Assembly: GCF_003044185.1 (NCBI RefSeq)
Contig: NZ_PYYB01000002.1
Location: forward strand, 186,001-250,000
Direction: 5' to 3'
DNA: 64,000 nucleotides
Source: Paraconexibacter algicola
GTDB taxonomy: Bacteria > Actinomycetota > Thermoleophilia > Solirubrobacterales > Solirubrobacteraceae
Part shown: piece after piece, positions 4,301 to 61,100 of the stretch
Layout: every line of letters starts with the position of its first letter
How positions within the stretch are numbered: the stretch's first letter is position 1
Made by a program: the position numbers and the translations under genes
The notes under the pieces: generated by a model
What the model saw: only the letters and a program-made list of their open reading frames with translations
What the model was told of the DNA's origin: nothing
Databases searched by the model: none

Positions 4301-4306
4301 GCCCCG

Positions 4307-4312: not shown

Positions 4313-5341
4313 GCCCACGGCGCGGTCCGCCCGGCCGTGCGGGTGCCCGCCGGCCGCCGGTGCGGCGGGCACCGGGCGGGGCGACCGGCCGGGCCCCGAG
4401 GCGACCGCGACGGCGGCCGGGACCGGGGTGGGCGGCGGGATCCGCTCGACGCGGGCGCGCTGGGTGGCCACGACGCAGGCCAGGACCCCCAGCGCCGCGG
4501 CCGCGGTGCCCGGGCCGACGGCCTCACCGAGCACGAGCGCCGACCAGCCGAGCCCGAGCAGCGGCTGCGCGAGCTGCACCTGCCCGACCTTCGCGACACC
4601 GCCCCGGGCGAGCCCCGCGTACCAGGCGAAGAAGCCGAGGAACATCGAGAAGACCGAGACGTACGCGAATCCCGCCCAGGCGGTCCCGGGGACGCCGGAG
4701 ACGGGCGTCGAGGCGAGCGACGCCGCGGCGATCGCGGCCGTGAGCGGGAGCGCGAGCACGAGCGCCCAGCAGATCGTGCGCGCCCCGCCGAGCTCGCGCG
4801 CGAGGGCCCCGCCCTCCGCGTAGCCGAGCGCGCAGACCACGGTCCCGAGGAGCATCAGGCCGTCGGCGCGGGTGGGGGCGCCACCGCTGGTGGCGAGCGC
4901 GAAGCCGCCGACGATCAGCAGTCCGGCGGCGGCCGCCAGCCAGAAGCGGCCCGACGGCCGCTCGCCCGCGCGCAGGACCGCGAACGACGCGGTCAGCGCG
5001 GGCAGGACGCCGATGACGACGATCCCGTGCGCCGCGGTCTCGGTCTCGAGCGCCAGCGAGGTCGCCAGCGGGAAGCCGACGACGACCCCGGCGGCGACGA
5101 CCAGCAGCCGCCGGGTCTGGGGGCCCGTGGGCCGTGGAGCACGCCCGACGGCGAGCACGGCGACGGCTAGCAGGGCGGCGACGGTGGCGCGGCCGAAGGC
5201 GACGAGCCACGGGTCGAGCCCGCCGTCGACGGCGACGCGGGTCGCGGGCAGGGAGAACGAGAAGGCCACGACGCCGAGCGCTCCGAGGAGCAGCCCTTGC
5301 GTTTCTCGACCGGGCGCAGTAGCGTTACTGTCATCTCTCAT
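4310..5341 (-). CDS. EamA/DMT-superfamily membrane exporter
   Basis: The 343-residue protein has about ten hydrophobic helices in two five-helix halves, starting with QGLLLGALGVVAFSFSLPAT and including AHGIVVIGVLPALTASFAVL and FLGFFAWYAGLARGGVAKVG, which is the EamA arrangement (drug/metabolite exporters such as RhaT, YdcZ, RarD types). The last 40 residues are a Pro/Ala-rich cytoplasmic tail. The ATG lies in the same CATG as the ATG of the divergent MocR regulator, and a -10-like TATCGT is five bases upstream on its strand. Divergent MocR plus EamA pairs usually mean the regulator controls the transporter. The substrate is unknown; amino-acid or PLP-related compounds are plausible because MocR senses such ligands. 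Confidence 0.87.
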   Translation of the reverse strand: MRDDSNATAPGRETQGLLLGALGVVAFSFSLPATRVAVDGGLDPWLVAFGRATVAALLAVAVLAVGRAPRPTGPQTRRLLVVAAGVVVGFPLATSLALETETAAHGIVVIGVLPALTASFAVLRAGERPSGRFWLAAAAGLLIVGGFALATSGGAPTRADGLMLLGTVVCALGYAEGGALARELGGARTICWALVLALPLTAAIAAASLASTPVSGVPGTAWAGFAYVSVFSMFLGFFAWYAGLARGGVAKVGQVQLAQPLLGLGWSALVLGEAVGPGTAAAALGVLACVVATQRARVERIPPPTPVPAAVAVASGPGRSPRPVPAAPAAGGHPHGRADRAVG

Positions 5342-8330: not shown

Positions 8331-10142
8331 CTACTTCGCGTCGCCGAGCTCGAGGACCGCGAGGAACGCCTCCTGCGGCACCTCGACGCGGCCGACCTGC
8401 TTCATCCGCCGCTTGCCCTCCTTCTGCTTCTCCAGCAGCTTGCGCTTGCGGGAGATGTCGCCGCCGTAGCACTTGGCGGTGACGTCCTTGCGGAAGGCCT
8501 TGACGGTCTCGCGGGCGACGATGTGGGAGCCGATCGCCGCCTGGATCGGCACGTCGTACTGCTGGCGCGGGATCTTCTCGCGCAGCTTCTCGGTGAGCGT
8601 GCGGCCGACGCCGTAGGCCTTGTCCTTGTGGACGAGCATGCTCAGCGCGTCGACGACGTCGCCGGCGAGCAGCACGTCGAGCCGCACGAGGTTCGAGGCC
8701 TTCATGCCGGTGACCTCGTAGTCCAGCGACGCGTACCCGCGGGTCCGCGACTTCAGCTGGTCGAAGAAGTCCATGACGATCTCCGACAGCGGCAGGTCGT
8801 ACATCATCTGCACGCGGTCGGCGGACAGGTAGGTCATGCCGTCGTGCTCGCCGCGCTTGTCCTGGCAGAGCTCCATGATCGTGCCGACGTACTCCTTCGG
8901 CGTGATGATCGTGGCCTTCACGTACGGCTCGCGGATCTCCTTGATCCGGGCCGGCTCGGGCATGTCGGACGGGTTGTAGACGTGCAGCTCCTCGCCGTTG
9001 GTGAGCGAGACCTCGAAGCCCACCGAGGGCATCGTGCACATGAGGTTGAGGTCGTACTCGCGCTCCAGCCGCTCGCGCACGATGTCCATGTGCAGCAGAC
9101 CGAGGAAGCCGCAGCGGAAGCCGAATCCCAGGGCGTCGGAGGTCTCGGGCTCCCAGTGCAGCGCCGCGTCGTTGAGCGTCAGCTTCTCGAGCGCGTCGCG
9201 GAGGTCGCCGTAGTCGTCGGCCTCGATCGGGAACATGCCGCAGAAGACGACCGGCTGCACGTCGCGGTAGCCGGGCAGGGCCTCCTCGGCCCCCGCGCGC
9301 TTCGTCGTGATCGTGTCGCCGACGCGCAGCTTCGTGACGTCCTTGATGCCGGTGATGACGTACCCGACCTCCCCGACCGTGAGGTGGTCGGCGCTCGTCA
9401 TCGCCGGGGTGAAGTAGCCGATGTCGTCGATGTCGGCCTCGGTGCCGGTCGCCATCGCGCGGATCGCCTCGCCCTTGCGGAAGGTGCCGTCGACGACGCG
9501 GATGTAGGCGACCACGCCGCGGTACTGGTCGAACTCCGAGTCGAAGATCACCGCGCGGGGCGCCGCGTCGGGGTCCCCCTCCGGCGGCGGGACCTTCTCG
9601 ACGAGCTCCTCGAGGACCTCGAGCACGCCCTCCCCGGTCTTGCCGCTGATGCGCTTGATCGCGTCCGCGGGCTCGCCGAGCAGCTCCGCGACCTCGGCGG
9701 CGACGCGCTCGGGCTCGGCGCCCGGCAGGTCGATCTTGTTCAGGCACGGGATCAGCTCGAGGCCCGCGTCGACCGCGAGGTACGTGTTGGCGAGCGTCTG
9801 GGCCTCGACCCCCTGCGACGCGTCGACGACGAGCAGCGCGCCCTCGCACGCCGCCAGCGACCGCGAGACCTCGTAGGTGAAGTCGACGTGGCCGGGGGTG
9901 TCGATGAGGTGGAACTGGTAGGTCTCGCCGTCGCGCCGGGAGGTGAAGTAGACGCGCACCGCCTGCGACTTGATCGTGATGCCGCGCTCGCGCTCGAGCT
10001 CCATCGAGTCGAGCAGCTGCGCGCGCATCAGCCGGGGGTCGACCGTCTGCGTCAGCTCGAGGATGCGATCGGCCAGCGTCGACTTCCCGTGGTCGATGTG
10101 GGCGATGATCGAGAAGTTCCGGATCTGCGACTGGTCGGCCAT
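8331..10142 (-). CDS. lepA: Elongation factor 4 (LepA), ribosome back-translocase GTPase
   Basis: The 603-residue translational GTPase has G1 AHIDHGKS (14-21), the switch I region [11 protein letters not shown]3 DTPGHVDF, G4 NKID, then domains II-V and the LepA-specific C-terminal region with [24 protein letters not shown]. Full-length for the family. The ATG at 10142 is at the conserved start of [20 protein letters not shown]; a longer in-frame GTG-type start seven codons upstream is less likely. A TGCGATCCT extended -10 lies 11 bases before the ATG. It follows murJ by 70 bases in the same direction and converges on the MOSC gene. Confidence 0.97.
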
Positions 10143-48279: not shown

Positions 48280-48286
48280 CGCCGTG

Positions 48287-48697
48287 ATGACGACCGCGCA
48301 CCGCTGGGGCGTCGCGCTCCTCGCCGTGGCCGGCGGTCTGCAGGTGGTCTACGGTCTCGCCGCCGTGTCGGGCTACGGCCCGTTGCGGGAGAGCGTCCGC
48401 GACATCGAGTCGAACCCCAACTACGGCAAGCTCTACTTCAGCCTCGCGGTCTGGGGCGTGCTGCTGCTGCTCGTCGGCTCGGCGTGCGTGTGGTCGGCCC
48501 GCAAGCTGCAGCACGACGCCCGTCACGCCCGGATGGGCGGGCTCTGCGCGGCGCTCGTCGGGCTCGGGCTCGCGTTCTTCACGCTGGCGATCTTCCACGT
48601 CGCGTCGCTGGTGTCCGTCGTGCTGCTGCTGATGACCCTGTACGTGCTCTCCTACCGGGTCGAGGACCCGCCGGACACGCGCGGGCCGTTCGGCTAG
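48287..48697 (+). CDS. Four-helix membrane protein, DUF7144-like
   Basis: The 136-residue protein has four clear helices (ALLAVAGGLQVVYGLAAV, LYFSLAVWGVLLLLVGSACV, GLCAALVGLGLAFFTLAIF, VVLLLMTLYVLSY) and the layout of actinobacterial DUF7144 proteins, often near stress genes; role unknown. Single gene: divergent from the small basic gene and convergent with the sigma/anti-sigma-like gene (seven bases between stops). Confidence 0.75.
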   Translation: MTTAHRWGVALLAVAGGLQVVYGLAAVSGYGPLRESVRDIESNPNYGKLYFSLAVWGVLLLLVGSACVWSARKLQHDARHARMGGLCAALVGLGLAFFTLAIFHVASLVSVVLLLMTLYVLSYRVEDPPDTRGPFG

Positions 48698-48704: not shown

Positions 48705-49625
48705 CTAGCGCGGCACGACGCCGCGGAGCACGACGGTGCCGGGGCGACGCGGGAACGCCGCGGCCGACGTGCTCCCGTCGCCGAGCCGCTCGACCTCGCG
48801 CTGCAGCCGCGACAGCCGCCCGGCGTCGGCGGCGAGCAGCTCGATCGCGCGGCTGCGACCGAGGACCGGCGCGAGCGCCGGCGGCAGGTCGTAGCGGCGG
48901 GCGAACCGGCCCTGCCCGCCGGCGTCCTCGACCCCGACCGGGAGCGGGAAGCCGCGCCCCTCCCCCGTGTCCGCCCACAGCAGGAAGACGCGCCCGCGCG
49001 GCGCGGCCGGGAGATCGTCGAGCTCGAGGTCGAGGTAGGGCTCGAACCGCACGGTCGAGCCGATCGTGGCGCGCCCCGCGTCGGCGGTCGCCCCGGGCGC
49101 GCGGAGCGCGATCAGCACGGGCGCCGGGGTCGCGGCCGGGTCCGGTCCCGCCGCCCGCTCGGCGTCGTCACCGCCCGCCAGGCGACCGGTCGCCGCGAGG
49201 ACGACGAGCACCGCGGCGACGACCGCCCCGCCGACGAGCGCCCAGGTCCAGGTCCGGCTGCCCGGCCGGGGCGCCGGCGCACGGCCGCCGTCGGCGCCGA
49301 TGCCGGGCTCGGGCAGGTCGGGCGCGACGTAGCCGGGCCAGCCGACCTGGAGGGTCTGCGCGATCCGCGCGGCGCGCTCCCGCGCGACGGGGTCGGCGGC
49401 GAGCGCCGCACGGGCCCGCCGCCGGGCGTCGGGCGTGGCGTGGCCGAGCAGCAGCGCGGCGACGTCCTCCCCCGGGTCGGCGTCCCCGATCGCCGCGAGC
49501 GCCCCGTGCGCCCGGGCGCGGACGTCCGCGACCGGCACCCGGGTGAGCTGCGCGATCCGGTCGAGGTCCAGGCCCCGCCCGAGGAGCAGGTCGAGGACCG
49601 CGCGCTGCTCGCCGCTCAGCGCCAC
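48705..49625 (-). CDS. Membrane protein with sigma-region-4-like HTH and anti-sigma-K-like domain
   Basis: The 306-residue protein begins with a sigma-70 region 4-like helix-turn-helix (LSGEQRAVLDLLLGRGLDLDRIAQLTRV PVADVRARAHGAL pattern), followed by a helical stretch, one membrane helix (WTWALVGGAVVAAVLVVLAA, about 130-150) and an extracytoplasmic beta domain (RGRVFLLWADTGEGRGFPL) like the C-terminal part of anti-sigma factor RskA. That suggests a membrane-tethered regulator or sensor. GTG start is 22 bases after the last Mce gene in the same direction, so it may belong to the Mce transcript. No CxxC zinc motif. Confidence 0.62.
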   Translation of the reverse strand: MALSGEQRAVLDLLLGRGLDLDRIAQLTRVPVADVRARAHGALAAIGDADPGEDVAALLLGHATPDARRRARAALAADPVARERAARIAQTLQVGWPGYVAPDLPEPGIGADGGRAPAPRPGSRTWTWALVGGAVVAAVLVVLAATGRLAGGDDAERAAGPDPAATPAPVLIALRAPGATADAGRATIGSTVRFEPYLDLELDDLPAAPRGRVFLLWADTGEGRGFPLPVGVEDAGGQGRFARRYDLPPALAPVLGRSRAIELLAADAGRLSRLQREVERLGDGSTSAAAFPRRPGTVVLRGVVPR

Positions 49626-49647: not shown

Positions 49648-50982
49648 CTACCGGCACGGCGCCTTCGGGGTGCTCCGGGGCGGCACCGTGCACGGCACGA
49701 TCCGCGGGTAGTCGCCCGTGAACGGCTTGGGGTCGAGCGCGTCGTCGGGTCCCGGGTACGGGTTGCTCGCGCCGGTCTCCGGCCCGTCCGCCGTCTCGTT
49801 GAGGTCGATGCCGAAGCCGACCCGCGCGTAGCGACCGCCCGCGTCCCGGTTCTTCAGGGCGCCGGCGAGCAGCGCGTAGCCCGTCGCGATCGACTTCGAC
49901 CGCGGCGTCAGGTACTCGAGCGCGGGGACGAGGTTCCGCGCACCGGGCACGCCCGCCTGGACCACGGGGAGCAGGTCCTTCAGCAGCGGCTCGAGGCGCC
50001 GCAGCGTCGGCTGCGCCTCGGCGTTCAGCGGCTTCAGGCCGCGGAGGATCGCGTTGAGGTCGTCGACGACGTCCCCGAGCGGGACGCGGGCCTTCGGATC
50101 CAGCGCCCGGGCGAGCGCCGGGGCGGCGTCGCTGAGCTTGAGGAACACCGGGCGCGCCTCGGTGAACAGCGGCTGCAGCCGCGTCAGGGAGGTGCGGCCG
50201 CTGTCCAGCAGCCGGGGCAGCTCGTCCAGGCCGCGCTCCAGCGAGGCGGTGTTCGAGCCGAGCGCCTCGAGCGTGCTGCGCCCGCCGGTGACGATCCGGC
50301 GGATCGACTGCTCCCGGTCCCCGAGCGTCGTGAGCACCGTGTTGGCGCTGCGCACGAGCTCCGCGATCTGCGGCTCCTGGCCGCGGACGGTCTTCGTCAG
50401 CGTGTGCAGCTCGTTCACCGTCCGCGAGACCCCGGCGAGCGTGCCGTTCAGCCGCTCCCCGTTGCCGGGCGCGTTGGTGGCCTGCGCGACGGTGGTGATG
50501 AGCGAGCGGACGCGGCGGCGGCCCTCCTCGTCCAGGAAGGCGAGCGCCTCGTCGAAGTCGACGCTCGTCTCGGTCCGCTCCACGATCTCCCCGGAGCGCA
50601 GCTCGCGCGCCCCGGCGCTGCCGCGCGAGTCGACCGCGAGGTACGGGTCGCCCAGGAGGCTCCGCGCCCCGATCCGGATGACCGCGTCCTGCTTGAGGCG
50701 GAAGTCGGGGTCCAGCGTGAACGTCACCACCGACTCGCGGCGGCCGCGGTCGTAGTCGACGCGCGTCACGGTGCCGACGTTGATGCCCCGGAACAGGACG
50801 GGCTGCTTGGTCGGCAGCGTCTTGTTGTCGGTGAAGCGCGCCTTCAGCTCGTAGGGGTTGCGCAGGAACGCGGTCGGGTCGGGGCCCTGGAACCGCTGGT
50901 TGAGGAAGATGAAGGTCAGCAGCGCCCCGAACGCGAGCAGGATCGAGATGACGACGCCGACCTTGGGGATGCGATGGTCCAC
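49648..50982 (-). CDS. Mce-family lipid-transport protein (sixth of the cluster)
   Basis: The 444-residue protein has an N-terminal membrane helix (VGVVISILLAFGALLTFIFL), one MCE domain (ELKARFTDNKTLPTKQPVLFRGINVGTVTRVDY, about 40-120) and a long helical region that in mycobacterial Mce proteins forms the hydrophobic tunnel through the envelope. GTG start one base before the previous gene's stop. Mce subunits assemble as a heterohexamer with YrbE permeases and an ATPase to import lipids or sterols; the substrate is not predictable. Confidence 0.9.
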   Translation of the reverse strand: MDHRIPKVGVVISILLAFGALLTFIFLNQRFQGPDPTAFLRNPYELKARFTDNKTLPTKQPVLFRGINVGTVTRVDYDRGRRESVVTFTLDPDFRLKQDAVIRIGARSLLGDPYLAVDSRGSAGARELRSGEIVERTETSVDFDEALAFLDEEGRRRVRSLITTVAQATNAPGNGERLNGTLAGVSRTVNELHTLTKTVRGQEPQIAELVRSANTVLTTLGDREQSIRRIVTGGRSTLEALGSNTASLERGLDELPRLLDSGRTSLTRLQPLFTEARPVFLKLSDAAPALARALDPKARVPLGDVVDDLNAILRGLKPLNAEAQPTLRRLEPLLKDLLPVVQAGVPGARNLVPALEYLTPRSKSIATGYALLAGALKNRDAGGRYARVGFGIDLNETADGPETGASNPYPGPDDALDPKPFTGDYPRIVPCTVPPRSTPKAPCR

Positions 50983-50983: not shown

Positions 50984-52420
50984 TCAGCCTCCCGTGCCCG
51001 TCCGCGGCTTCAGCTGCGCGGTCCGCGGCAGCCCCGGGAGCTGGAAGCGCAGCCCGCACGCCGAGCGGCTGCCGTCGCGGCAGCTGTACTCGAGCATCTT
51101 CGCGAGCATCACCCCGAGCCGGGTGCTCGACCCGACCCGCTGGCGTGCCTGCGCCGCGGTCAGGCCCAGGCCCCCGGCGGGCAGCTCGAGCTTCACGATC
51201 TTCACGTTCGCGGCCGGGCCCGCGTTGCGGACGGTGGAGACGGCGCCGCTGAGGTTCACCGCGGTCTGCACGATCCCGTTGCGGTAGTCGAACAGCAGCT
51301 GCGACAGGCGACCGAGCTCCTGCAGGGCCGGGATCTGGTCGCGTCGCACCCGCGCCTCCTGCCCGCGCAGGCCCTCGGCGAGCTGGCCGACCGGGGTCGC
51401 GCCGACGTCGATGACGCGCTTGCCGGAGGCGAGGAAGCGGTCGAGCTCGGGCGTGAGCGCCCGGAGCTTGTCGGCCGTCGGGGCGAGCTTGCCGGTGACG
51501 GGGTTGAGCGCGTCGAGCGCCGGGACCAGCGAGCCGGCGAGCCGCCGGGTCGACGCGAGCGTCGCCTGCGTCTGGCGGAGCGTCGGCGCGAGCTCGCGCG
51601 TGGTCTGCTCGAGCTCGGGGGCGCGCCGCTGCGTGACCGCGAGCGTGCGGCTGCCGAGGTCGACGGCGGCGGCGAGCTGGCGGCCGCGGTCCCCGGTCGT
51701 GCGCGTGAGCTTCTCGAGGTTGACGGTCAGCGACGAGAGCAGCCGGCGGCGCTCGGCGAGGGCCTGGGCCAGCGGCGTCACGCCGTCGGTGAGGCGGCCG
51801 AGCTTCGTGAAGATCCGGCGGATCTCCTTCTCGCGGCCGCCGAGCGCGTCGGCCGCCTGGTTGAGCACGACCTGGACCTGCGCCTGGGTGCCGGGGTCGA
51901 GGATGCCGGTGAGGTCGTCGATCGCCACGAAGCCGCCGGTGCGCGACGCGGGGATCACCTGGTCGTCGGGCAGCGCGCCGGTCCGCGGGTCGCCCGGGGA
52001 GATGTTCACGATCAGCGTCTGCAGGATGCTCGTCGGGCGGACGAACGCGCTGGCGTTGCGGAAGATCTTGCCCTTGAGCTGCGGCTCGAGCCGCAGCCGC
52101 AGCCGCGCCTGGCCGTTCTCGACGGTCGCCTTGACGACCTTGCCGACCGCCACCCCGGCGACGCCGACCGCCGGCTCCTTGCTGGGGAGCAGGCCGCGCG
52201 CGTCGGGCATGACCATCTCGACGTAGTAGGGCTCGTCGGTGAACGGCAGCTGCACGTTCTTCTTCACCAGCGTGTAGCCGACGAACACGCAGGCCGCGGC
52301 GACGAGCATGAGGAACATCGTCCGCGTGAGCGGGATCCGCCCGGCCTTCAGCTGCGGGTCGATGAACGACCACGCGCCGCGGGCGAGGCGCACCGGCAGG
52401 GATCCGCGCGACCGGCTCAT
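50984..52420 (-). CDS. Mce-family lipid-transport protein (fifth)
   Basis: The 478-residue protein has one membrane helix after a 33-residue cytoplasmic leader (MFLMLVAAACVFVGYTLV), an MCE domain (PYYVEMVMPDARGLLPSKEPAVGVAGVAVGKVV), then a helical tunnel region and a Pro-rich tail with a Cys pair (CRDGSRSACG). Translationally coupled with the fourth gene (ATGA overlap). No lipobox, so it is not an LprK-type lipoprotein. Confidence 0.9.
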   Translation of the reverse strand: MSRSRGSLPVRLARGAWSFIDPQLKAGRIPLTRTMFLMLVAAACVFVGYTLVKKNVQLPFTDEPYYVEMVMPDARGLLPSKEPAVGVAGVAVGKVVKATVENGQARLRLRLEPQLKGKIFRNASAFVRPTSILQTLIVNISPGDPRTGALPDDQVIPASRTGGFVAIDDLTGILDPGTQAQVQVVLNQAADALGGREKEIRRIFTKLGRLTDGVTPLAQALAERRRLLSSLTVNLEKLTRTTGDRGRQLAAAVDLGSRTLAVTQRRAPELEQTTRELAPTLRQTQATLASTRRLAGSLVPALDALNPVTGKLAPTADKLRALTPELDRFLASGKRVIDVGATPVGQLAEGLRGQEARVRRDQIPALQELGRLSQLLFDYRNGIVQTAVNLSGAVSTVRNAGPAANVKIVKLELPAGGLGLTAAQARQRVGSSTRLGVMLAKMLEYSCRDGSRSACGLRFQLPGLPRTAQLKPRTGTGG

Positions 52421-53748
52421 CGGCAGCCTCCCGCCGCGCGGACGACGGCGACCGCCTCGGGCGAGACCCGCCGGACCTGCTCGCAGGCGGCGGCGCCACG
52501 GGTCGCCGCCCCGCCGCCCAGGAGGTCGAGCAGGCCGGTGGTGACCGCGTCGTCGCCGCCGTTGACGTTGACGCGCAGCCGGTGCCCGGGCGCCGACGGG
52601 TTCTGGGCCGGGGTCTGGAAGCTCGACACCGCGCCGTCGAGCGCGGTGAACGCGCCCGCGACGAGCTGGAACGCCCCCGAGGACGCCCCGAGCGACGTGC
52701 GGGCGTTGAGCGCCTCAAGGGTCGGCGGGAACGTCTTCAGCGCCGGCTGCAGCGCGTCGAGCATCTCGGTCAGGCCCCCCTTGGCGGCGGCCAGGCGGCC
52801 CGCGACGAGGCGCGCGTCGCGCACGACGGGCGTGCCGTCCTTCAGGATCGGCGCCGAGCGGGTGAGGATCGGCGTCGTGGCCTTCAGGGCGCGCGCGACG
52901 GCGCGCGGGGCGGTGGCGCCCAGGCGCGAGCTGAACGTCGCGAGCCGGCGGACCGCGAGGTCGAGCGCGGGAGCGTCGCCGTTCAGCCGCTCGAGCGTCG
53001 CCGGGAGCTCGGCGAGCGCCGCGTCCAGCGGCGCGCCGCCGTCGACCGACAGAGCGGCCATCGTCGCGTTGACCCGGCGGGTCAGCGGGATCAGCTGGTC
53101 GCGCTCGGACGCGAGCGCGTCGGCGGTGCGGGCCAGGCCGCGGATCGAGCCGACCAGCTCGCGGCGCTGCGGGCCCTGCGCGGCGCGCATGGCGGGCGCG
53201 AGCGCCCGGGCCATCGCCGGAGCGTTCTTCAGCGTCGTCTGCAGGCCGGTGATCGCCTCTCCCCGGAGGGTCTCGCCGCCAACGCGGGCGAGCCGTCGCA
53301 GATCGGTGCGGATCTCGGGCCGCAGGACGCGCAGCGCCTTGTCGAGCGTCACGTAGTTCGTGGTCTGCCGGACCGGGATCTCGCCGCCGTCGCGCAGCAG
53401 CGGGGCGCTCGGGCTGCCCGGGGCGAGGTCGATGAAGTTGGAGCCCTCGAACAGGGTGTGCGGCCGCATGTCGGCGCGGGCGTCGGTGTGGACCGGGTAG
53501 TCCTCGCTGAGCTTCAGCTCGACGCGGACGTCGTCGCCGACGCGCTCGACCTTGCCCACCTCGCCGAGCTTGACCCCGGCGATGCGGACGTCGCGGTCGA
53601 TGGCGCCCAGTCCGTGGACGGTGTCGAACACCGCCCAGTAGCGGTAGGTGTCCTTGACCGGGTTGGGCTTCGTCACGCCGAGCACGATCGTGAGGCTGAT
53701 CACCACGAGCAGGGCGACGCCCGCGAGCCGCTGCACCCCGAGGCTCAT
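52417..53748 (-). CDS. Mce-family lipid-transport protein (fourth)
   Basis: The 443-residue protein starts MSLGVQRLAGVALLVVISL with one membrane helix, then an MCE domain (KDTYRYWAVFDTVHGLGAIDRDVRIAGVKLGEVGKVE), a long helical region and a Cys-containing C-terminus. ATG overlaps the third gene's stop. Same family and role as its neighbours. Confidence 0.9.
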   Translation of the reverse strand: MSLGVQRLAGVALLVVISLTIVLGVTKPNPVKDTYRYWAVFDTVHGLGAIDRDVRIAGVKLGEVGKVERVGDDVRVELKLSEDYPVHTDARADMRPHTLFEGSNFIDLAPGSPSAPLLRDGGEIPVRQTTNYVTLDKALRVLRPEIRTDLRRLARVGGETLRGEAITGLQTTLKNAPAMARALAPAMRAAQGPQRRELVGSIRGLARTADALASERDQLIPLTRRVNATMAALSVDGGAPLDAALAELPATLERLNGDAPALDLAVRRLATFSSRLGATAPRAVARALKATTPILTRSAPILKDGTPVVRDARLVAGRLAAAKGGLTEMLDALQPALKTFPPTLEALNARTSLGASSGAFQLVAGAFTALDGAVSSFQTPAQNPSAPGHRLRVNVNGGDDAVTTGLLDLLGGGAATRGAAACEQVRRVSPEAVAVVRAAGGCR

Positions 53749-55130
53749 CGTCCGCACCCCGTCGCGGTCTGGGCGTCGTTCTGGGCCTCGCCGGGGGCGG
53801 GCAGCGGGTTGCGGCACGGGTGCGCGGTGAGCACCGGCACGAGCCGCAGCGCCGGGGCGCCGGGCTTGCTGCCGGAGTTCGGCCGCGTGCTGGTGGCCTC
53901 CTGCAGCCAGAGGCCGGCCTGCCGGATCTCCGGGAGGTACGGGTCGATCGTGGCGAGCAGCTGGTCGAGCGAGCGGTTCAGCGGGCCGACCGCGGTCTGG
54001 ATGCCGAAGAGGTCACGGACGACCGGCCGGGCGGCGATGAGGACCTTCTCGGTGATGCCGTCGGCCGCGCCGACCGCGCCGCCGCTGCCGCCGACCCCGC
54101 CGCCGCCCGCGCCCCCGGCCCCGCCGCCCAGGAGCGCGGCGAAGCCGTCCCGCAGCTGGTCGCCGCGACCGGCGAGCTCGGTGAGCCCCGGGAGCTGGGC
54201 GTTGAGGTTGCGGACCGCGGGGGTGAACGCGGTGGCGCCGCGGGAGATCGCGTCGAAGGCACGGGTCGCGCTCGGGGTCGTGCGCAGGACCGCGTCCTCG
54301 AACGGCCGCAGGAGCTCGATGGTGCGGCCGAGCGACGCGCTGCGCCGCGCGGTCGCGCCGAAGGTGCGGCTGCCGCCCGCGATCAGGCCGGCGAGGTCGT
54401 CGCCGCCGTCGCCCTTCAGACCGCGGGCGGTGTTCGCCGCGCCGAGCACGAGCCCGCCGAGCGCCCCGTCGGTGCTCGTGGCGGCGCGCAGCTGGTCGCC
54501 GAGGTAGCTCGCGGTGGCGGGCAGGTCGCGCAGGGCGCCGTTGAGCTCGACGCCGCGACCGGCCACGCCGAAGCCGGTGTTCACGAGCGTCTTGGAGAGG
54601 TTCTCCCGGGCGGTCCGGTCGAACAGCTGGACGACCTCGAGCAGGTCGGTCCCGGAGGTCGCCTCGGCGCGCAGCGTGTCGCCGTCCTTCAGCGTCTGCT
54701 TCGAGGTGCCCGGGGTCAGCGCCAGGTAGGTGACGTAGACGATCGACTTGACGCGCACGAACGCGGTGGTGTCGACCGGCAGCGGCTTGTACTTGCCCTT
54801 GCTGATGCTGATCTCCACGAGCGTGCGGTCGTTCGCGGGGTCGGGCTCGACCTTCTGGATCAGACCGGCGAGGGAGCCGCCGACGCGCACCGCCTGCCCC
54901 TTGCGCAGGGAGGGGGCGTCGCTGGGGACCTTGACGGTGATCCGGTACTTCGGCAGGAACGGCGGGCCGGTGGTGGCCTTGAACGCGGTGTAGCCGAGAA
55001 AGGCGACGACGGCGAGGACCGCCAGTCCCAGCGGCGTGCGGTAGCGGTCGATCCGCTCGCTGGCCCGCGAGACCAGGGCGCTCATGCCTCCGCCGAGCGT
55101 GCGGCGCGGGGTGCGGGTCGGGCCGGCCAT
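53745..55130 (-). CDS. Mce-family lipid-transport protein (third), with poly-Gly linker
   Basis: The 461-residue protein has a basic leader, a membrane helix (TPLGLAVLAVVAFLGYTAF), an MCE domain (PKYRITVKVPSDAPSLRKGQAVRVGGSLAGLIQKVE) and a helical region interrupted by a Gly-rich loop (GGGAGGAGGGGVGGSGGAVG) not seen in its neighbours. The ATG at 55130 shares one base with the second gene's stop; an internal ATG at 55085 is less likely. Ends with Cys residues in HPCRNPLPAP and TATGCGR. Confidence 0.9.
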   Translation of the reverse strand: MAGPTRTPRRTLGGGMSALVSRASERIDRYRTPLGLAVLAVVAFLGYTAFKATTGPPFLPKYRITVKVPSDAPSLRKGQAVRVGGSLAGLIQKVEPDPANDRTLVEISISKGKYKPLPVDTTAFVRVKSIVYVTYLALTPGTSKQTLKDGDTLRAEATSGTDLLEVVQLFDRTARENLSKTLVNTGFGVAGRGVELNGALRDLPATASYLGDQLRAATSTDGALGGLVLGAANTARGLKGDGGDDLAGLIAGGSRTFGATARRSASLGRTIELLRPFEDAVLRTTPSATRAFDAISRGATAFTPAVRNLNAQLPGLTELAGRGDQLRDGFAALLGGGAGGAGGGGVGGSGGAVGAADGITEKVLIAARPVVRDLFGIQTAVGPLNRSLDQLLATIDPYLPEIRQAGLWLQEATSTRPNSGSKPGAPALRLVPVLTAHPCRNPLPAPGEAQNDAQTATGCGR

Positions 55131-56716
55131 CAGCGCAGGAGGTAGTCCAGGAGGGAGGTGATCGTGTCGCCGCCGGGGGCGTCGCCGCGACCGCCGGCCG
55201 GGGCGCCCTGCCGGCCGCCGAGCACGCCGAGCGCCTCCTTCACCGGAGCGAGGAGGTCGGGGCCCGTGGAGCCGGTGCCCGAGCCGCCCGAACCGGCGGC
55301 GGGGCGTCCGCCGTCGCCGGTCGCGGGCCGCGTCGGCGACGGCAGCTTCACCGTCGGCAGCTTCGGGAGCTTCGGCAGCGGGGTCGTCTGCTGCTCGGCG
55401 CGCTGGGCGCGCTCGGCGCGCTGGAGCAGGCCGGCGAGGCAGCCGGGGCCGTTGGTGCCGCCGAACGCCTCGCAGTTCAGCAGCGCGGTCACGCGCAGGA
55501 ACTTGCGGTCGGTCCAGTCGGCGGGGAAGCCGGGCTGGTTGCCCGGCTCGGTGGTCGCGGCGCCGAGGCCGAAGCCGTAGCCGGGCCGGCTCTCGGGACC
55601 GCCGTCCTTCTCGTCCCCGAAGAACGCGCGGATCGTCTCGTCGCCGCCGAGGATGCCCTTGAGCAGGTTCGACACCGCGGGTGCGAGGTCGAAGGCCCCG
55701 GTGACGACCCGCTGCGGGTCGGCGGCGATCGTCGGCGCCCCGGAGACGAGGAGCTTGCGGGTCAGCTCGAGCGTCGGGCCGCTCTGGCGCAGCGCGAAGC
55801 GCAGGTCGTCGAGGAAGCCGGGGGCGCGGTCGAGCAGCCGGCCGAGCCCGGGAGCGCCGGCGCGCAGCTGGTCGGCCAGCGGGCGGGTCTCGTCGGCGGT
55901 GCGCCGCAGGCTCGCGAGCATCGTGCGCAGCTGCCGCTGGGTCTCGGGGAGCGCCTGCAGGCCGCGGTCCAGCGCCCCGGTGCGGGCGGCGGTCGTGTCG
56001 AGCGTGCGTGCGAGCCCGTCGATCAGCGTGCCGAGCTCGCGGCTGCGGGAGGCGCCCTGGCGGCTGACGTCCTCCATGTCGGTGATGAGCCGCTTGAGCG
56101 CCGCGTTCTGCCCGTTGACCTCGGCGAGCGCCTTGTTGGCGGCGTCGAGGGTCGGCACGAGCCGCAGGGCCGCCCGGTTGACGTCCGCGCCGCGGCCCTC
56201 GAGCGCCTGCGAGAGGCTCTCGATGATGAGCTTGACGCCGGCCTCCTCGGGCGGGCCGAACGCGTTGATGAGGTCGTCCAGGCGCGGCGCGGCGAGCGTG
56301 TTGGTGCACGGCGCGCCGGGCTCGGGCGCGTCGCAGGTGACGGTCGGCTCGCCGTCCTTCTCCCGCAGCGGCTCGGGCGCGGTGCCCGGGTCGAAGCTGA
56401 TGTAGCTGTCGCCGGTGCTGTCGAACTGGCGGATCGTCGCGGTCGCGTCGGCCCGGGGCGCGGGCAGGTCCTTGTCGAGCAGCAGCGTCACGCGGGCGAG
56501 GCCCTCGTCGTTGACGGTCGTCTTGCCGACGGAGCCGGCCGGCGCCCCGTTGCTGCGGACCGCCATGCCCTCGAGGATCGGGAAGGCGTCGCGGAACTCG
56601 GCGACGACCTGCCGGGAGTCCGACGGCGGCCGGGAGGTGATGACGAGCACGCCGATCACGCCGACCAGCAGGCCGCCCATGATCACCGCCATCGCGCGGG
56701 CGAGGACGTCGGGCAT
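55130..56716 (-). CDS. Mce-family lipid-transport protein (second)
   Basis: The 528-residue protein has a membrane helix (AVIMGGLLVGVIGVLVITS), an MCE domain (QVVAEFRDAFPILEGMAVRSNGAPAGSVGKTTV), an insertion with Cys pair (VTCDAPEPGAPC), the helical tunnel region and a long disordered Gly/Pro/Ser tail (about 450-510). ATG shares one base with the first gene's stop. Largest Mce protein of the set. Confidence 0.9.
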   Translation of the reverse strand: MPDVLARAMAVIMGGLLVGVIGVLVITSRPPSDSRQVVAEFRDAFPILEGMAVRSNGAPAGSVGKTTVNDEGLARVTLLLDKDLPAPRADATATIRQFDSTGDSYISFDPGTAPEPLREKDGEPTVTCDAPEPGAPCTNTLAAPRLDDLINAFGPPEEAGVKLIIESLSQALEGRGADVNRAALRLVPTLDAANKALAEVNGQNAALKRLITDMEDVSRQGASRSRELGTLIDGLARTLDTTAARTGALDRGLQALPETQRQLRTMLASLRRTADETRPLADQLRAGAPGLGRLLDRAPGFLDDLRFALRQSGPTLELTRKLLVSGAPTIAADPQRVVTGAFDLAPAVSNLLKGILGGDETIRAFFGDEKDGGPESRPGYGFGLGAATTEPGNQPGFPADWTDRKFLRVTALLNCEAFGGTNGPGCLAGLLQRAERAQRAEQQTTPLPKLPKLPTVKLPSPTRPATGDGGRPAAGSGGSGTGSTGPDLLAPVKEALGVLGGRQGAPAGGRGDAPGGDTITSLLDYLLR

Positions 56717-58017
56717 CAGCGGCCCCGCTCCACGCCGACGTTCGTGGACGCCGCGTCGGCCCACGGCTGGCAGGCCAGGGTGCCGGGCAGCCGCGTGTAC
56801 GGCTTCTCCAGCGAGCCGGGACCGCAGTCGCCGGGCCCGAGCCGCTTGCCGGTGCTGCCGGGCGGCGTCGGGAACAGGCCGACCCCGAGGGTCAGCACGT
56901 GCCCGTTGGCGTCGTAGGTCCCCAGCGTCGAGCCGAGGTTCTGGAAGAACCCGACGGTCTCGGGGATGTACGCGCGCAGCGCGTTGCCCAGCGGCAGGAT
57001 CTCGTCGATCAGCGGGGCGAGCGGCGGCGCGACGCGCGAGGCGCTGCGGATGATCGGCCGGAAGGCGCGGAGGTTGCCGGGTGCCTGGCGCACGAGCCGG
57101 CGGGTCTCCACGAGGAACGGGCCGGCCGCCTCCAGCGCGGGCGGCAGCGCCTTCGCGAACGGCTCGATCTCCCGGGCGACGGGCTCGAGTCCCTGCACGA
57201 GCGTGCGCAGGCGCGGCGTGGCGGTGGCGAGCGAGGCGAGCGCGGTGCGGCCGCGCGCGAGCGACGGGCCGAGCAGCTGCGTGCTGCGCCGCAGCTCGGC
57301 CTGGCGGCCGGCGGTCACCGACAGCAACGTCGCGGTGCGGTCGGCGGCGGCCCCGAGGTCGGCGGGGCTGGCCGCCAGGGCGGACGTCACGCGGCTGCCC
57401 TCGCGCACGAGCGTGCGGACGGCCTGCCCGTCGCTGTTGACCTGCGCGAGCAGGTTCGCGGTCTCGTTGAGCGCCGGGGCGCTGCGCCGCAGCGTGCGGT
57501 CGATGTCGCGCCCGCGGCCCTTCAGCGAGCGGTCGAGGCCGACGAGGAACGCCTTGATGTTCGCGCGGGTCGGCGCGTCGAGCGTCTCCGCGGCGTCGTC
57601 GAAGTTCACCGGCTGGTCGGTCTGCGGGCCGCGCAGGACCGTGCCCGCGCGCAGGCGCGGCTTCGTCGGGTCGCCGATCGTGAGCTCGATCGTGCGGTTG
57701 ACCGCGCCGGCGTTGGAGAACAGCTGGATGTCGGCGGTGGCGCCCTCGCGCAGCACGTAGTCGTCGTCGATCTCCATCGTCACGACGGGCCGGTCGCCGA
57801 CGAGCTCGACGCGCTTGACCGTGCCGACCGGGACCGCCGCCGCGCGCACCGCGCCACCGGGGATGAGGCCGCGGACGTCGTCGAACTGCGCCTTGATCTC
57901 GTAGCTGCCGCGGGTGCCGCCGAGGATCGACGCGACGGCGATCGCGGCGAGCGCGAGCGCGAGGATGGCGATGATCCGGCTGGAGTGCTGCCGGAGGCGT
58001 TCGATGACGATCCGCAC
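56716..58017 (-). CDS. Mce-family lipid-transport protein (first)
   Basis: The 433-residue protein has a membrane helix (RIIAILALALAAIAVASIL), an MCE domain (SYEIKAQFDDVRGLIPGGAVRAAAVPVGTVKRVELV), a helical region and a C-terminus with Cys (GPGDCGPGSLEKPYT, GTLACQPW). GTG start six bases after the second permease. First subunit of the six-gene Mce series. Confidence 0.9.
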   Translation of the reverse strand: MRIVIERLRQHSSRIIAILALALAAIAVASILGGTRGSYEIKAQFDDVRGLIPGGAVRAAAVPVGTVKRVELVGDRPVVTMEIDDDYVLREGATADIQLFSNAGAVNRTIELTIGDPTKPRLRAGTVLRGPQTDQPVNFDDAAETLDAPTRANIKAFLVGLDRSLKGRGRDIDRTLRRSAPALNETANLLAQVNSDGQAVRTLVREGSRVTSALAASPADLGAAADRTATLLSVTAGRQAELRRSTQLLGPSLARGRTALASLATATPRLRTLVQGLEPVAREIEPFAKALPPALEAAGPFLVETRRLVRQAPGNLRAFRPIIRSASRVAPPLAPLIDEILPLGNALRAYIPETVGFFQNLGSTLGTYDANGHVLTLGVGLFPTPPGSTGKRLGPGDCGPGSLEKPYTRLPGTLACQPWADAASTNVGVERGR

Positions 58018-58023
58018 GGTGGC

Positions 58024-58851
58024 CTACGCGATCGGCAGCCGCGGGTTGAAGCCGAAGAACAGGAACGTCATCGTCATGTTCAGGACGGTCACGAGGATCA
58101 GGTTCACGGCCATCGACTGCGCGGTCGCCGTCCCCACCTCCACGGGACCCCCGCGGACGCGGTAGCCGAAGTAGAGCGCGACGGTCACGACTCCGGCGCT
58201 GATCACGAGCCCCTTGATGAACGAGAAGACGATGTCCATCGGGTTGGTGACCGTGTAGTAGACGAACTCCCAGGTGCCCTGCGAGACCGTCTGGCTGCGC
58301 ACGTACGAGCCGATCCAGGAGGCGCCCTCGGCCGCCCCGAGCGAGATGAGATAGAGGATCGGCAGGACGATCGCGGAGGCGAGCATCCGGGTGGAGACCG
58401 TGAAGGCCAGCGACGGGATGCCGATGATCTCCATCGCGTCGACCTCCTGGTTGACGCGCATCGCGCCGAGCTGGGCGACGATGCCGCCGCCGACCTTCGC
58501 GGCGAGGATGAAGCCGAAGAGGAACGGCACGATCTCGCGGTTCACGCAGAACGAGCTGAAGATCGGCCCGGTGACGCTCGCGCCGATCGCCTGCCCGATC
58601 GACTCGGCGGCGATGCCGCACGCGGCGCCGACGATGAAGCAGATGAAGATGATGACGAGGGCGCTGCCGGCGACGAGGAAGCCGACCTGGCGCAGCACCT
58701 CGGCGGTGAACTTCGGCAGGTGGCGGAACGCGGCGATCGCGCGGACGACGAACGTCGCGTACTCGCCCGCGGCGTCGATCACCGGGATCTTGCGCGGCTT
58801 CTCGATCGCCTTCATCAGCGGCGAGCGGGGCGGCTCCGGGGTGACGCTCAT
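58024..58851 (-). CDS. YrbE/MlaE-type permease subunit B of the Mce transporter
   Basis: The 275-residue permease has the MlaE fold: about five hydrophobic helices, GFILAAKVGGGIVAQLGAMRVNQEVDAMEIIGIPS (the coupling-helix region EVDALEVMGI-like) and NMTMTFLFFGFNPRLPIA at the end. ATG overlaps the stop of the first permease (ATGA). Pairs with the other YrbE to form the membrane channel. Confidence 0.94.
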   Translation of the reverse strand: MSVTPEPPRSPLMKAIEKPRKIPVIDAAGEYATFVVRAIAAFRHLPKFTAEVLRQVGFLVAGSALVIIFICFIVGAACGIAAESIGQAIGASVTGPIFSSFCVNREIVPFLFGFILAAKVGGGIVAQLGAMRVNQEVDAMEIIGIPSLAFTVSTRMLASAIVLPILYLISLGAAEGASWIGSYVRSQTVSQGTWEFVYYTVTNPMDIVFSFIKGLVISAGVVTVALYFGYRVRGGPVEVGTATAQSMAVNLILVTVLNMTMTFLFFGFNPRLPIA

Positions 58852-59675
58852 ATGAGGAAGTTCACCTCCGGGAAGAACGCCTCGAAGAGCGTCGTGTAGA
58901 CGAGCGTCACGACCCCGACGACGACCAGCGACGAGACGACGGACTCGTTGACCGCCTTCCCGACGCCCTCGGCGCCGCCGCCGACCTGCATGCCCTTGTA
59001 GGCGGCGATCAGGCCGATGAGGATGCCGAAGAGCGTGAGCCGCACGACGCTGCCCCACAGGTCGAGGAAGTGGGTCAGCAGCAGCAGCTGGTCGAAGAAC
59101 GCCTGCGTCGTGTTGCCGTACAGGAACACGGTCGCGCAGTAGGTGCCGGCGACGCCGGCCCAGAACGTCAGCAGCGCGAGCACGGGCATCCACAGGGCGA
59201 GGCCGACGACGCGCGGCATGATCAGGTTGCGGATCGGGTTGACCCCGAGCACCTCGAGCGCGAGCAGCTCCTGGCGGATCTTCCGCGCCCCGATCTCGGC
59301 GGTGATCGTCGCGCCCAGCGTGCCGGCGACGATCGCGGCGGTGAGGATCGGCCCGAGACCGCGCAGGAACGCGATCGGCGCCGCGCCGGAGATCCGGTCG
59401 ACCGCGCCGAACGCGGCGGCCAGCGAGCCGCCCTGGATGCCGATCGTCGAGAAGCCGACGACGAACGAGACGATCATCGCGGGCAGCAGGGTCGCCTGGA
59501 AGGCGAACACGTACTGGCGCACGAACTCCGTCCGCCACGAGAGACCGGGCGTGAAGATCTGCGCGGCGACCTTGATCCCGAGCGCGGCGGTGCCGCCCGA
59601 GTTCTGCACCCACGATCCGGGTGGGATGTCCGTGCGCGTGAACGCCTTCCTGGCGGCCGCGACCGGACCGGTCAT
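58848..59675 (-). CDS. YrbE/MlaE-type permease subunit A of the Mce transporter
   Basis: The 275-residue permease has the same fold: VGFSTIGIQGGSLAAAFGAVDRISG, GTLGATITAEIGARKIRQELLALEVLGVNPIRNLIMPR (coupling helix) and late helices. ATG start with GGGGAG ribosome binding site (one of few real ones here). It is the first gene of the permease-Mce operon; a -35/-10 pair lies at 59700-59729. Confidence 0.94.
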   Translation of the reverse strand: MTGPVAAARKAFTRTDIPPGSWVQNSGGTAALGIKVAAQIFTPGLSWRTEFVRQYVFAFQATLLPAMIVSFVVGFSTIGIQGGSLAAAFGAVDRISGAAPIAFLRGLGPILTAAIVAGTLGATITAEIGARKIRQELLALEVLGVNPIRNLIMPRVVGLALWMPVLALLTFWAGVAGTYCATVFLYGNTTQAFFDQLLLLTHFLDLWGSVVRLTLFGILIGLIAAYKGMQVGGGAEGVGKAVNESVVSSLVVVGVVTLVYTTLFEAFFPEVNFLI

Positions 59676-59699
59676 GCCTCTCCCCTGAGCACGGCGAGC

Positions 59700-59729
59700 A
59701 TCCTAGACACTTGTGTACATACGACGCAA
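59700..59729 (-). promoter_or_regulatory. Promoter of the yrbE-mce operon with palindrome in the spacer
   Basis: On the minus strand TTGCGT (59724-59729), an 18-base spacer, then TAGGAT (59700-59705). The spacer holds the palindrome ACAC-TT-GTGT. This is a conventional leadered promoter, predicted start near 59693. Confidence 0.6.
59706..59720. promoter_or_regulatory. Operator-like palindrome shared by the two Mce promoter regions (site 1)
   Basis: GACACTTGTGTACAT includes the 13-base string CACTTGTGTACAT, which matches CACTGGTGTACGT at 61181-61193 in 11 of 13 positions. It lies between the -35 and -10 of yrbE-mce, an ideal place for a repressor. The binding protein is not identified. Confidence 0.5.
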
Positions 59730-59757
59730 CGTGGACGTGTCACCGCGGGTCGCGGAC

Positions 59758-59763
59758 TATGCT
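59758..59763 (+). promoter_or_regulatory. -10 hexamer TATGCT of the small envelope gene
   Basis: TATGCT, six bases, then GTG at 59770, again a leaderless spacing. Confidence 0.55.
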
Positions 59764-59769
59764 CGGACG

Positions 59770-60177
59770 GTGAGCGAGCCGAACCCCGAGTGGCTGATCC
59801 TGGCGATCACGCTGATCGCGCTCGCGATGGCGCCGCTGGCCTCCAAGCTCGTCCGTGACGTCGGCGACCGCGTCTCCGGCGAGTCCGGAGGCGGAGCCCC
59901 GACCGACGAGGCGGCCGAGCGGCGCGCCCGCGACGAGGAGATCGGCCAGATGCTCGAGGCGCGCGCCTACATCCGCGCGCGCCGCGGCGAGCAGGACTGG
60001 ACCGCCCAGGACGCCGTCGCGCCTCCCGCCGCCGACGACGGGCTGCGCGAGGAGGTCCGGCAGGTGGTCGTCGCCGGGAACGAGCGGCGGGCCCGGATGG
60101 GCGAGCCGCCGCTGGACGTCGAGGCCGAGGTGGAGCGCCGGCTGGCGCGACTGCTCGGCGGCGCCGACGCGGGCTGA
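59770..60177 (+). CDS. Small single-helix membrane protein next to the Mce permeases
   Basis: The 135-residue protein has one N-terminal helix (WLILAITLIALAMAPLASKL), then a charged cytoplasmic or periplasmic tail predicted helical (EEIGQMLEARAYIRARRG, DVEAEVERRLARLL). No known family is recognised. Divergent from yrbE-mce and convergent with the Mce ATPase, so it is between two parts of the Mce system; a role as an accessory is likely but inferred. GTG start set by TATGCT; a longer frame back to 59713 is rejected. Confidence 0.7.
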   Translation: MSEPNPEWLILAITLIALAMAPLASKLVRDVGDRVSGESGGGAPTDEAAERRARDEEIGQMLEARAYIRARRGEQDWTAQDAVAPPAADDGLREEVRQVVVAGNERRARMGEPPLDVEAEVERRLARLLGGADAG

Positions 60178-60197
60178 CGCCCGCGTCCCGGCGGCGA

Positions 60198-61100
60198 TCA
60201 GTCCATCGCCAGCGGCCCGGTGGGCGCCGCGTTGAGGAACTGGTGCACGAACGGGTTCTCGGACTCGAACAGCTCGTCGGCGGGCCCGGACTCGACGATC
60301 CGGCCGCGCCACAGCACCGCGATGTAGTCGGCGACGGTGCGCGCCGTGCCGAGGTGGTGGCTGATGATCACGTAGCAGCCCTTGTTCTCGGCGTGGATCT
60401 CCTGCACGAGCTCGCACAGCAGCGCCGTGCGCACCGGGTCCAGGCCCGAGTCGGGCTCGTCGAAGAAGACGATGTCCGGGTCGAGCACGAGCGCGCGCGC
60501 GAACCCCGCGCGCTTGCGCATGCCGCCGGAGAGCTCGTTGGGCATCTTCTCCGCGGCGTGCCCGAGCCCGACCTCCTTGAGGCGGCGGTTGACGATCGCG
60601 GCGATCTCGTCCTCCCCCTTGTCGGTGTGCATCCGCAGCGGGAAGGCGGTGTTGTCGTAGATGTTCATCGAGCCGAACAGCGCGCCGTCCTGGAACAGCA
60701 GGCCGAAGCGCTTGCGCAGCTCCAGCAGCTCGTCCTCGCGCATGTTCGGGACCGACTGCCCGTGCACGAGGATGTCGCCCGCGTCGGGGCGCATGAGGCC
60801 GACGATCAGGTTGATGAGGACCGACTTGCCGGTGCCGGAGGGGCCGAGCAGCATCGAGACCTGGTCGTCGGGGAACGCGAGGTTCAGCCCGTTCTGGATT
60901 CGCATGCGCCCGAACTGCTTGACGACGTCGACCACCTCGATCGCGTCGCGGCCCGTGTGCTTGCGCTTGGCCCCGGTGTGCCACGAGTACGGGTTGGCGT
61001 CACCCGGCTCGATGCCCGGCACCGTGTAGTCGACGTGCAGGCGCGTGCCCGGGATCGGCTCGTAGTAGGCGCCGGAGTCCTCTTCGTGCTGCTCAACCAC
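60198..61100 (-). CDS. Mce-associated ABC ATPase (MlaF/MceG-like)
   Basis: The 300-residue ATPase energises Mce lipid import. Walker A GPSGTGKS (86-93), Q-loop LFQDGALFGSMN, signature LSGGM (190-194), Walker B with DEPDSGLDP (214-222), and the switch ISHHLGTARTV. The first 50 residues are an acidic extension not seen in MlaF (EQHEEDSGAYYEPIPG). DEPDSGLDP and the SGGM signature fit MlaF and MceG rather than other exporters. GTG start with GGGGAGGA ribosome binding site. Encoded apart from the yrbE-mce operon, separated by a gene on the other strand. Confidence 0.93.
   Translation of the reverse strand: MVEQHEEDSGAYYEPIPGTRLHVDYTVPGIEPGDANPYSWHTGAKRKHTGRDAIEVVDVVKQFGRMRIQNGLNLAFPDDQVSMLLGPSGTGKSVLINLIVGLMRPDAGDILVHGQSVPNMREDELLELRKRFGLLFQDGALFGSMNIYDNTAFPLRMHTDKGEDEIAAIVNRRLKEVGLGHAAEKMPNELSGGMRKRAGFARALVLDPDIVFFDEPDSGLDPVRTALLCELVQEIHAENKGCYVIISHHLGTARTVADYIAVLWRGRIVESGPADELFESENPFVHQFLNAAPTGPLAMD

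What the first reader, a model, noticed from the sequence alone, without database searches (positions are those of the whole stretch)
48705..49625. Sigma-region-4-like helix-turn-helix joined by a membrane helix to an RskA-like extracytoplasmic domain
An apparent DNA-binding sigma-type domain and an anti-sigma-type sensor domain occur in one chain, so it could be a one-component membrane regulator. It is 22 bases from the end of the Mce operon and may sense the envelope state or lipids and control Mce.
Basis: inference. Interest (0 to 1): 0.5.

Follow-up and report, generated by a model that had tools for sequence, protein, structure and literature searches.

The report
Membrane-bound sigma/anti-sigma fusion protein
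This gene encodes a membrane protein that joins the promoter-reading piece of a sigma factor to most of an anti-sigma factor in one chain; it is a stray second copy of a protein found across one order of actinobacteria, and its place beside lipid-transport (Mce) genes was seen in this genome only.

Summary
The gene (48705-49625, minus strand, 306 aa) starts 22 bases after the last Mce gene and encodes a sigma-region-4-like helix-turn-helix (HTH), one membrane helix and an RskA-like outer domain. The chain is thus a sigma/anti-sigma fusion without sigma region 2. It belongs to a family spread through what is, by record titles, the Solirubrobacterales; no full-length match was listed outside the order in the samples searched. 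The usual copy sits at a conserved locus beside a divergent thioesterase gene, and this genome has that copy too. The window copy is a second, divergent one; none of 12 other Mce loci examined carries the family nearby, so control of Mce is not supported beyond likely co-transcription. AlphaFold2 predicts HTH and ASD as one compact unit. The second half of the recognition helix lacks the basic residues common in the genome's own sigma factors, while the slot facing ASD helix 1 is hydrophobic in 61 of 62. I judge the HTH more likely an ASD-bound sigma mimic than a free DNA-binding head. The listed paper searches found no description of this architecture.

The parts
48705..49625 (-). whole gene, 306 aa, GTG start, last gene in line after the Mce genes
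49485..49619 (-). residues 3-47: sigma region 4-like helix-turn-helix (H5-16, H21-28, H32-47)
49341..49469 (-). residues 53-95: three helices homologous to the anti-sigma domain of RskA-type factors (taken as helices 1-3); the Asp-aromatic pair of helix 1 kept by the other members is absent in this copy
49185..49247 (-). residues 127-147: membrane helix
   Evidence: hydropathy; helix 131-146 at low confidence
48711..49127 (-). residues 167-305: RskA_C-like outer domain, predicted Cu,Zn-SOD-like beta sandwich without histidine
49648..50982 (-). Mce (MlaD-domain) gene directly upstream; its stop ends 22 bases before the start of the fusion gene
50984..61100 (-). rest of the Mce gene cluster: five more open frames with MlaD domains, two with MlaE (58024-59613 and 58848-59675) and an ABC ATPase (60198-61100); mechanical open frames, true starts not settled
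48284..48697 (+). convergent DUF7144 gene, ends 7 bases from the fusion gene's end

Best explanation
It is a membrane-anchored fusion of a sigma region 4-like domain with an RskA-type anti-sigma factor, lacking sigma region 2. Shown by sequence: sigma-4 HTH, ASD helices, one membrane helix, RskA_C-like outer domain; family spread across the order; window copy is a second copy outside the usual locus. Predicted: HTH and ASD form one compact unit. Inferred: the ASD holds its own sigma-4 in cis, as in sigma/anti-sigma complexes; the fusion arose from an ECF sigma/anti-sigma gene pair by loss of sigma-2; an envelope signal on the outer domain, by proteolysis or conformational change, opens the cis pair; and the output is mainly by partner exchange (the sigma-4 mimic or the freed ASD competing with a true ECF sigma factor) rather than by classical -35 DNA reading. 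The window copy is probably co-transcribed with the Mce genes, so its amount would follow Mce expression; whether it regulates Mce is unknown.
For: Family-wide domain matches. Separate profiles of HTH, middle and outer parts against 1,924 open frames from 48 loci: the middle profile, after the window gene itself, ranks first the six anti-sigma genes of L128, L129, L130, L132, L134, L136 (E 2.8e-7 to 4.5e-3, next 0.048); the outer profile hits the same six and others; the HTH profile hits L133, L135 and then sigma-factor frames. By eye each of the six stands beside an ECF-like sigma gene; in four (L128, L129, L132, L134) the called frames overlap. N-terminal model 1-105: pLDDT 93.5, pTM 0.83. 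PMC7406223 (passages): ASD helix 1 binds sigma-4 through a charged or a Leu-Leu contact, helix 4 binds sigma-2, and the sigma-4 residues contacted also touch the -35 element. In the family the matching slot (residue 43; my mapping, gapless alignment) is L, V or I in 61 of 62, the type the paper gives for SigK/RskA. No sigma-2 is present, and the window model has no helix between residue 95 and the membrane helix. Recognition-helix charge: family mean 0.02, own-genome sigma-4-type domains 2.83; not above zero in 43 of 62 against 0 of 30; basic residues at 41, 43, 44, 45 in 1, 0, 2, 0 of 62 against 21 of 30, 14 of 29, 11 of 28, 10 of 26. The HTH is the most conserved part.
Against: No binding, complex or membrane experiment exists. 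Two recognition-helix positions stay basic (36: 58 Arg and 1 Lys of 62; 38: 61 Arg of 62), which fits DNA contact as well. The window copy has net charge +2 there and lacks the Asp-aromatic (or His) pair of ASD helix 1 that the other 61 of 62 keep (58 by regular expression, three more read from its printed misses), so its cis pair may be weak. 24 of 39 rows outside f3 (f1 plus one f2) carry an E..EA..AL motif before the membrane helix that could be ASD helix 4 (0 of 22 in f3), so loss of that helix is not family-wide. Fold comparison of the N-terminal model gave Z up to 7.0 and Foldseek E of 0.64 or more, so the ASD fold is not confirmed by structure. HMMER's own alignment of the family to AlgU opens a three-residue insertion in the recognition helix, so my gapless mapping of residue 43 is not certain. 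In an f4 genome (label) the protein at the usual locus lacks HTH and ASD. The charge statistics use related sequences.
Confidence: 0.45

Rival explanations
1. One-component membrane transcription factor: the HTH binds DNA directly (as ToxR-like regulators do) and the RskA-like domain senses the envelope; the ASD-like helices serve as linker or mask.
For: HTH is the best conserved part; positions 36 and 38 nearly always basic; the usual copy is transcribed divergently from a thioesterase gene across a short gap (-14 to 116 bases in the 15 adjacent pairs measured, starts taken mechanically), a layout common for local regulators (general knowledge); window copy recognition helix +2.
Against: 43 of 62 recognition helices have no net positive charge against 0 of 30 sigma-4-type domains of the same genome; no operator was identified, the element seen by eye before the start codons looks like a plain -10 box.
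Confidence: 0.27
2. A working anti-sigma factor in trans for an ECF sigma factor encoded elsewhere, with the fused sigma-4 only as an intramolecular competitor that sets its affinity.
For: ASD and RskA_C parts are homologous to ECF-adjacent anti-sigma factors; possible helix 4 motif in 24 of 39 members outside f3; an ECF-like sigma gene family (c20) lies in 7 of 30 fetched regions, in this genome about 2.8 kb upstream of the usual copy (L160 at G000:C4:318046).
Against: No ECF sigma gene directly adjoins the family gene in either copy of this genome; f3 members and, by inspection, the window copy lack the helix 4 motif (one search counted f3); the helix 1 Asp-aromatic pair is missing in the window copy.
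Confidence: 0.18
3. A lipid or envelope sensor dedicated to the Mce transporter beside it.
For: 22-base gap and same strand.
Against: 0 of 12 other Mce loci carry the family nearby; the usual copies lie at a conserved non-Mce locus.
Confidence: 0.05

Closest known systems
RskA-type class I anti-sigma factors (Mycobacterium SigK/RskA; Pfam PF10099)
   Same: anti-sigma domain helices, membrane helix and RskA_C-like outer domain
   Different: carries its own sigma-4 HTH at the N-terminus and has no directly adjoining ECF sigma gene
ECF sigma factors fused to membrane anti-sigma parts (ECF48, ECF52 with SCO4117, ECF53; PMC8999054, passages seen)
   Same: sigma domain, anti-sigma part and membrane helix in one chain
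   Different: those are sigma factors with a zinc-finger anti-sigma extension; here sigma-2 is missing and no cysteine is present
PhyR-type sigma mimics (PMC5830050, start of abstract in the listing; one member gives a weak PhyR_sigma-like Pfam hit, E 0.36)
   Same: a sigma-like domain serving protein contact
   Different: PhyR joins a response regulator domain to a sigma domain; here the partner domain is an ASD and the protein has a membrane helix
ToxR-like membrane one-component regulators (recalled, no call)
   Same: cytoplasmic HTH, membrane helix, outer domain
   Different: HTH is of sigma-4 type and is followed by an anti-sigma domain

Membership tests
RskA-type class I anti-sigma factor | anti-sigma domain helices | tested here: met
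   middle-only profile ranks six ECF-adjacent anti-sigma genes first; the window copy is itself degenerate in helix 1
RskA-type class I anti-sigma factor | RskA_C outer domain after one membrane helix | tested here: met
   12 of 21 members match PF10099 at E<=1, best 1.1e-9; window protein alone gives no hit; outer-part profile links it to anti-sigma genes
RskA-type class I anti-sigma factor | gene next to a cognate ECF sigma gene | tested here: not met
   window neighbours are Mce and DUF7144; usual locus has thioesterase, NAD synthetase and MerR genes by eye, with an ECF-like gene somewhere in 7 of 30 regions but not adjacent
RskA-type class I anti-sigma factor | inhibits an ECF sigma factor | not testable with these tools
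   needs an experiment
ECF sigma factor (group 4) | sigma-4 domain | tested here: met
ECF sigma factor (group 4) | sigma-2 domain | tested here: not met
   the HTH begins at residue 3 and no sigma-2 match appears; the upstream part of the open frame has no start codon
ECF sigma factor (group 4) | basic recognition helix for -35 DNA | tested here: inconclusive
   43 of 62 members at or below zero net charge, window copy +2
ECF48/52/53-type sigma/anti-sigma fusions | complete ECF sigma factor fused to a zinc-finger anti-sigma extension with membrane helices | tested here: not met
   no sigma-2 match, no cysteine
Cu,Zn superoxide dismutase | metal-binding histidines | tested here: not met
   fold alike (1pzs, Z 11.3, 115 residues, 3.0 A) but the only histidines are residues 40 and 62, outside the domain

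The most novel reading that the evidence does not exclude
A signalling type in which a sigma/anti-sigma pair has collapsed into one membrane protein that keeps only the sigma-4:ASD half of the interface: a cis-locked sigma-4 mimic, kept through a whole bacterial order, that transmits envelope state by releasing or capturing sigma-4 contacts without ever being a sigma factor.
Probability: 0.33. Interest if true: 0.65.

Novelty: new variant of a known kind. Interest (0 to 1): 0.45.

Why it matters
If the cis pair is real, it gives a natural single-chain model of the sigma-4/anti-sigma contact and shows a sigma-derived domain kept for protein contact instead of promoter reading. It would also suggest a function for a protein conserved through an order of actinobacteria for which neither Pfam nor NCBIfam offered a model of its own.

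Tried and rejected
Mce-specific regulator: rejected as main reading after 12 other Mce loci showed no family member nearby. Operators at the usual locus: looked at by eye only; TANNNT boxes about 6-7 bases before start codons, read as leaderless -10 elements, no statistics run (in 4 regions the script found no divergent thioesterase start). The solved-structure sequence search listed no match to the ASD or outer domain. The N-terminal fold search was led by LuxR-type HTH chains at Z 5.4-7.0, which may be only a common arrangement. The first genome-contig scan with the single protein found nothing. A transferred Mce cluster plus fusion gene from an f3-like donor: the fusion gene groups with f3 (100/99, but branch length 1.94 and unusual letter make-up) and the Mce protein is 51% identical to that of f3 genome G038 against 33-34% in two genomes of the same genus, but G063 of the same family also has 51% and neither has the fusion gene beside Mce, so left open.

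Rows left out: A1 used 21 of the 30 family proteins extracted (without L012, L013, L014, L016, L017, L018, L019, L028, L030). The structure alignments used 20 of the 22 loci (without L107, runs of N, and L116, weak partial match). The 62-sequence set is what remained of 138 open frames matching at 1e-12, overlapping loci included, after asking for profile coverage from position 12 or less to 300 or more, merging identical stretches, and removing L133 and L135, which have no ASD. The 30 comparison domains are the 30 best of 54 Pfam PF08281 hits in the genome; I took four as non-ECF by their upstream text, and without them the lowest charge is still +1.

Literature: listings; passages of PMC7406223, PMC8103513, PMC8999054 and PMC12655853; abstract and outline of PMC7509140. 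None of what I saw describes a sigma-4-only fusion with an RskA-type anti-sigma factor; most subscription papers are not held, so this is weak evidence of absence.

Full report
What is there. The open frame 48705-49625 on the minus strand reads 306 residues from a GTG start and begins 22 bases after the stop of an MlaD-domain (Mce) gene. Upstream on the same strand lie open frames with an ABC ATPase domain, two with MlaE and six with MlaD in all; downstream is a convergent DUF7144 gene. The gene is probably the last of the Mce transcript (inference from spacing and strand). Third-position G+C of 0.97 and matching relatives show that it is a real gene.

Domains. Alone, the protein matches Pfam Sigma70_r4 only weakly (E=0.02) and RskA_C not at all; NCBIfam gives a weak anti-sigma-E hit over residues 57-230 (E=0.011). 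Relatives settle it: of 21 members scanned singly, 19 match Sigma70_r4, 18 Sigma70_r4_2 and 12 RskA_C at E<=1. The family profile finds ECF sigma region 4 chains in the PDB (1.4e-4; one designed repeat protein ranks higher through five weak repeats). A profile of the middle part alone, run against 1,924 open frames from 48 loci, ranked directly after the window gene the six anti-sigma genes that stand beside ECF-like sigma genes (E 2.8e-7 to 4.5e-3; next 0.048). These six loci had been picked with the full-length profile, so the set is not independent, but the middle part was tested on its own. Hence the chain is sigma-4, ASD helices, membrane helix, RskA_C-like domain.

Structure. AlphaFold2 on the window protein with 20 relatives gave mean pLDDT 83.4; HTH, ASD and most of the outer domain are confident, residues 118-133 and 147-152 are not. 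Residues 1-105 alone gave pLDDT 93.5 and pTM 0.83, which I read as one compact unit; no coordinates or error matrix were seen. The outer domain resembles Cu,Zn superoxide dismutase (1pzs, Z 11.3, 115 residues, 3.0 A; Foldseek's best E was 7.1e-3) but has no histidine, so the resemblance is of fold only. The N-terminal unit matched sigma-4 structures such as SigW domain 4 (TM-score by target 0.81, rmsd 1.4) but with Foldseek E of 0.64 or more, and the leading VIA-align rows, up to Z 7.0, were mostly LuxR-type HTHs; the ASD arrangement is not confirmed by fold comparison.

Distribution. With the single protein, 29 of 61 genomes (the own one included) match. With the profile, 230 of 232 genomes of the order have a match at E 1e-3, a figure that includes partial matches to what may be ordinary anti-sigma factors. 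In samples of the class (33 of 149 genomes at 1e-12) and phylum (7 of 149) no listed match from outside the order starts before profile position 40, so none covers the HTH. Of 22 named loci found, 15 are titled Solirubrobacterales, the rest Conexibacter, Thermoleophilia or broader labels; the order's name rests on these titles.

Genome context. Thirty regions were fetched. Of the 27 in which my gene caller found the family gene (the window region among them), 19 have a PaaI-like thioesterase gene directly upstream and divergent, 24 a MerR gene and 20 a NAD synthetase gene (names by eye); the window region shares no multi-genome gene cluster with the others except this one. The window's genome has the usual copy as well (G000:C4), with an ECF-like sigma gene about 2.8 kb upstream of it. 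In the tree of 62 proteins the window copy joins the f3 proteins (100/99) on a long branch of 1.94, while the genome's other copy lies among f1 proteins; the program warns that long rows and rows of unusual make-up are unsure, and the window copy is both. None of the 7 other genomes of the genus, several of them incomplete, has a copy close to the window type (E 1e-9). G122 also has two full-length copies, one of them without the usual neighbours by eye.

Mce link. The neighbouring Mce protein has ten further matches at 1e-30 in the 61 genomes and two more at 1e-60 in the order. None of these 12 loci, in 11 genomes, has the family in the 1.4-1.5 kb held downstream. So the Mce position is, in this sample, a single event.

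How it may work. In sigma/anti-sigma complexes ASD helix 1 binds sigma-4 and helix 4 binds sigma-2, and the sigma-4 residues contacted also touch the -35 element (PMC7406223, passages). The fusion keeps sigma-4 and three ASD helices and lacks sigma-2. The slot that in that paper is Arg178 of RpoE or Leu177 of SigK corresponds, by my gapless alignment, to residue 43, which is L, V or I in 61 of 62: the SigK/RskA contact type. HMMER's alignment to AlgU instead opens three residues there; the hydrophobic pattern at 35, 39, 42 and 46 speaks for the gapless one. Basic residues of the second half of the recognition helix are nearly gone (positions 41, 43, 44, 45: 1, 0, 2, 0 of 62, against 21 of 30, 14 of 29, 11 of 28, 10 of 26 in sigma-4-type domains of the same genome), while positions 36 and 38 stay basic (59 and 61 of 62). 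I read this as a sigma-4 kept for contact with its own ASD, not as a free promoter reader. Against: the two kept basic positions, the +2 charge of the window copy, its loss of the helix-1 Asp-aromatic pair that the other 61 keep, the possible helix 4 in 24 of 39 rows outside f3, and the f4 protein that does without both cytoplasmic domains. How the signal passes, and to which partner, is inference.

Verdict. The thing is a new variant of RskA-type anti-sigma factors or, equally, of sigma/anti-sigma fusions; strict membership in either fails on one defining feature (no adjoining sigma gene; no sigma-2).

Noticed in passing
L133:3694-4518 (minus) and L135:3384-4643 (plus): Two other proteins with a sigma-4-like HTH and an RskA_C-like domain, apparently with a membrane helix, but no recognisable anti-sigma domain; further fusion types may exist in the order.
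   Followed up: partly
L131:about 3825-4355 (plus): In an f4 genome the protein at the usual locus has only the membrane helix and outer domain; HTH and ASD are missing.
   Followed up: partly
usual locus, e.g. L052 about 9628-9725: Short divergent gaps with TANNNT boxes about 6-7 bases before start codons, suggesting leaderless transcripts of the fusion gene and perhaps the thioesterase gene (by eye).
   Followed up: no
window 49648-50982: This Mce protein is 51% identical to genes in G038 (another family) and G063, but 33-34% to those of two genomes of the same genus; the genome has a second Mce locus at G000:C5:32939-34219.
   Followed up: partly
L137:9925-11016 (minus): One of two full-length family copies in genome G122, beside a gene resembling a peptidyl-prolyl isomerase and near hisS- and aspS-like genes, so apparently another displaced copy (names by eye).
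   Followed up: no
window 48705-49625: G+C of the fusion gene is 0.815, above the other ten genes measured in the window (0.67-0.76).
   Followed up: no
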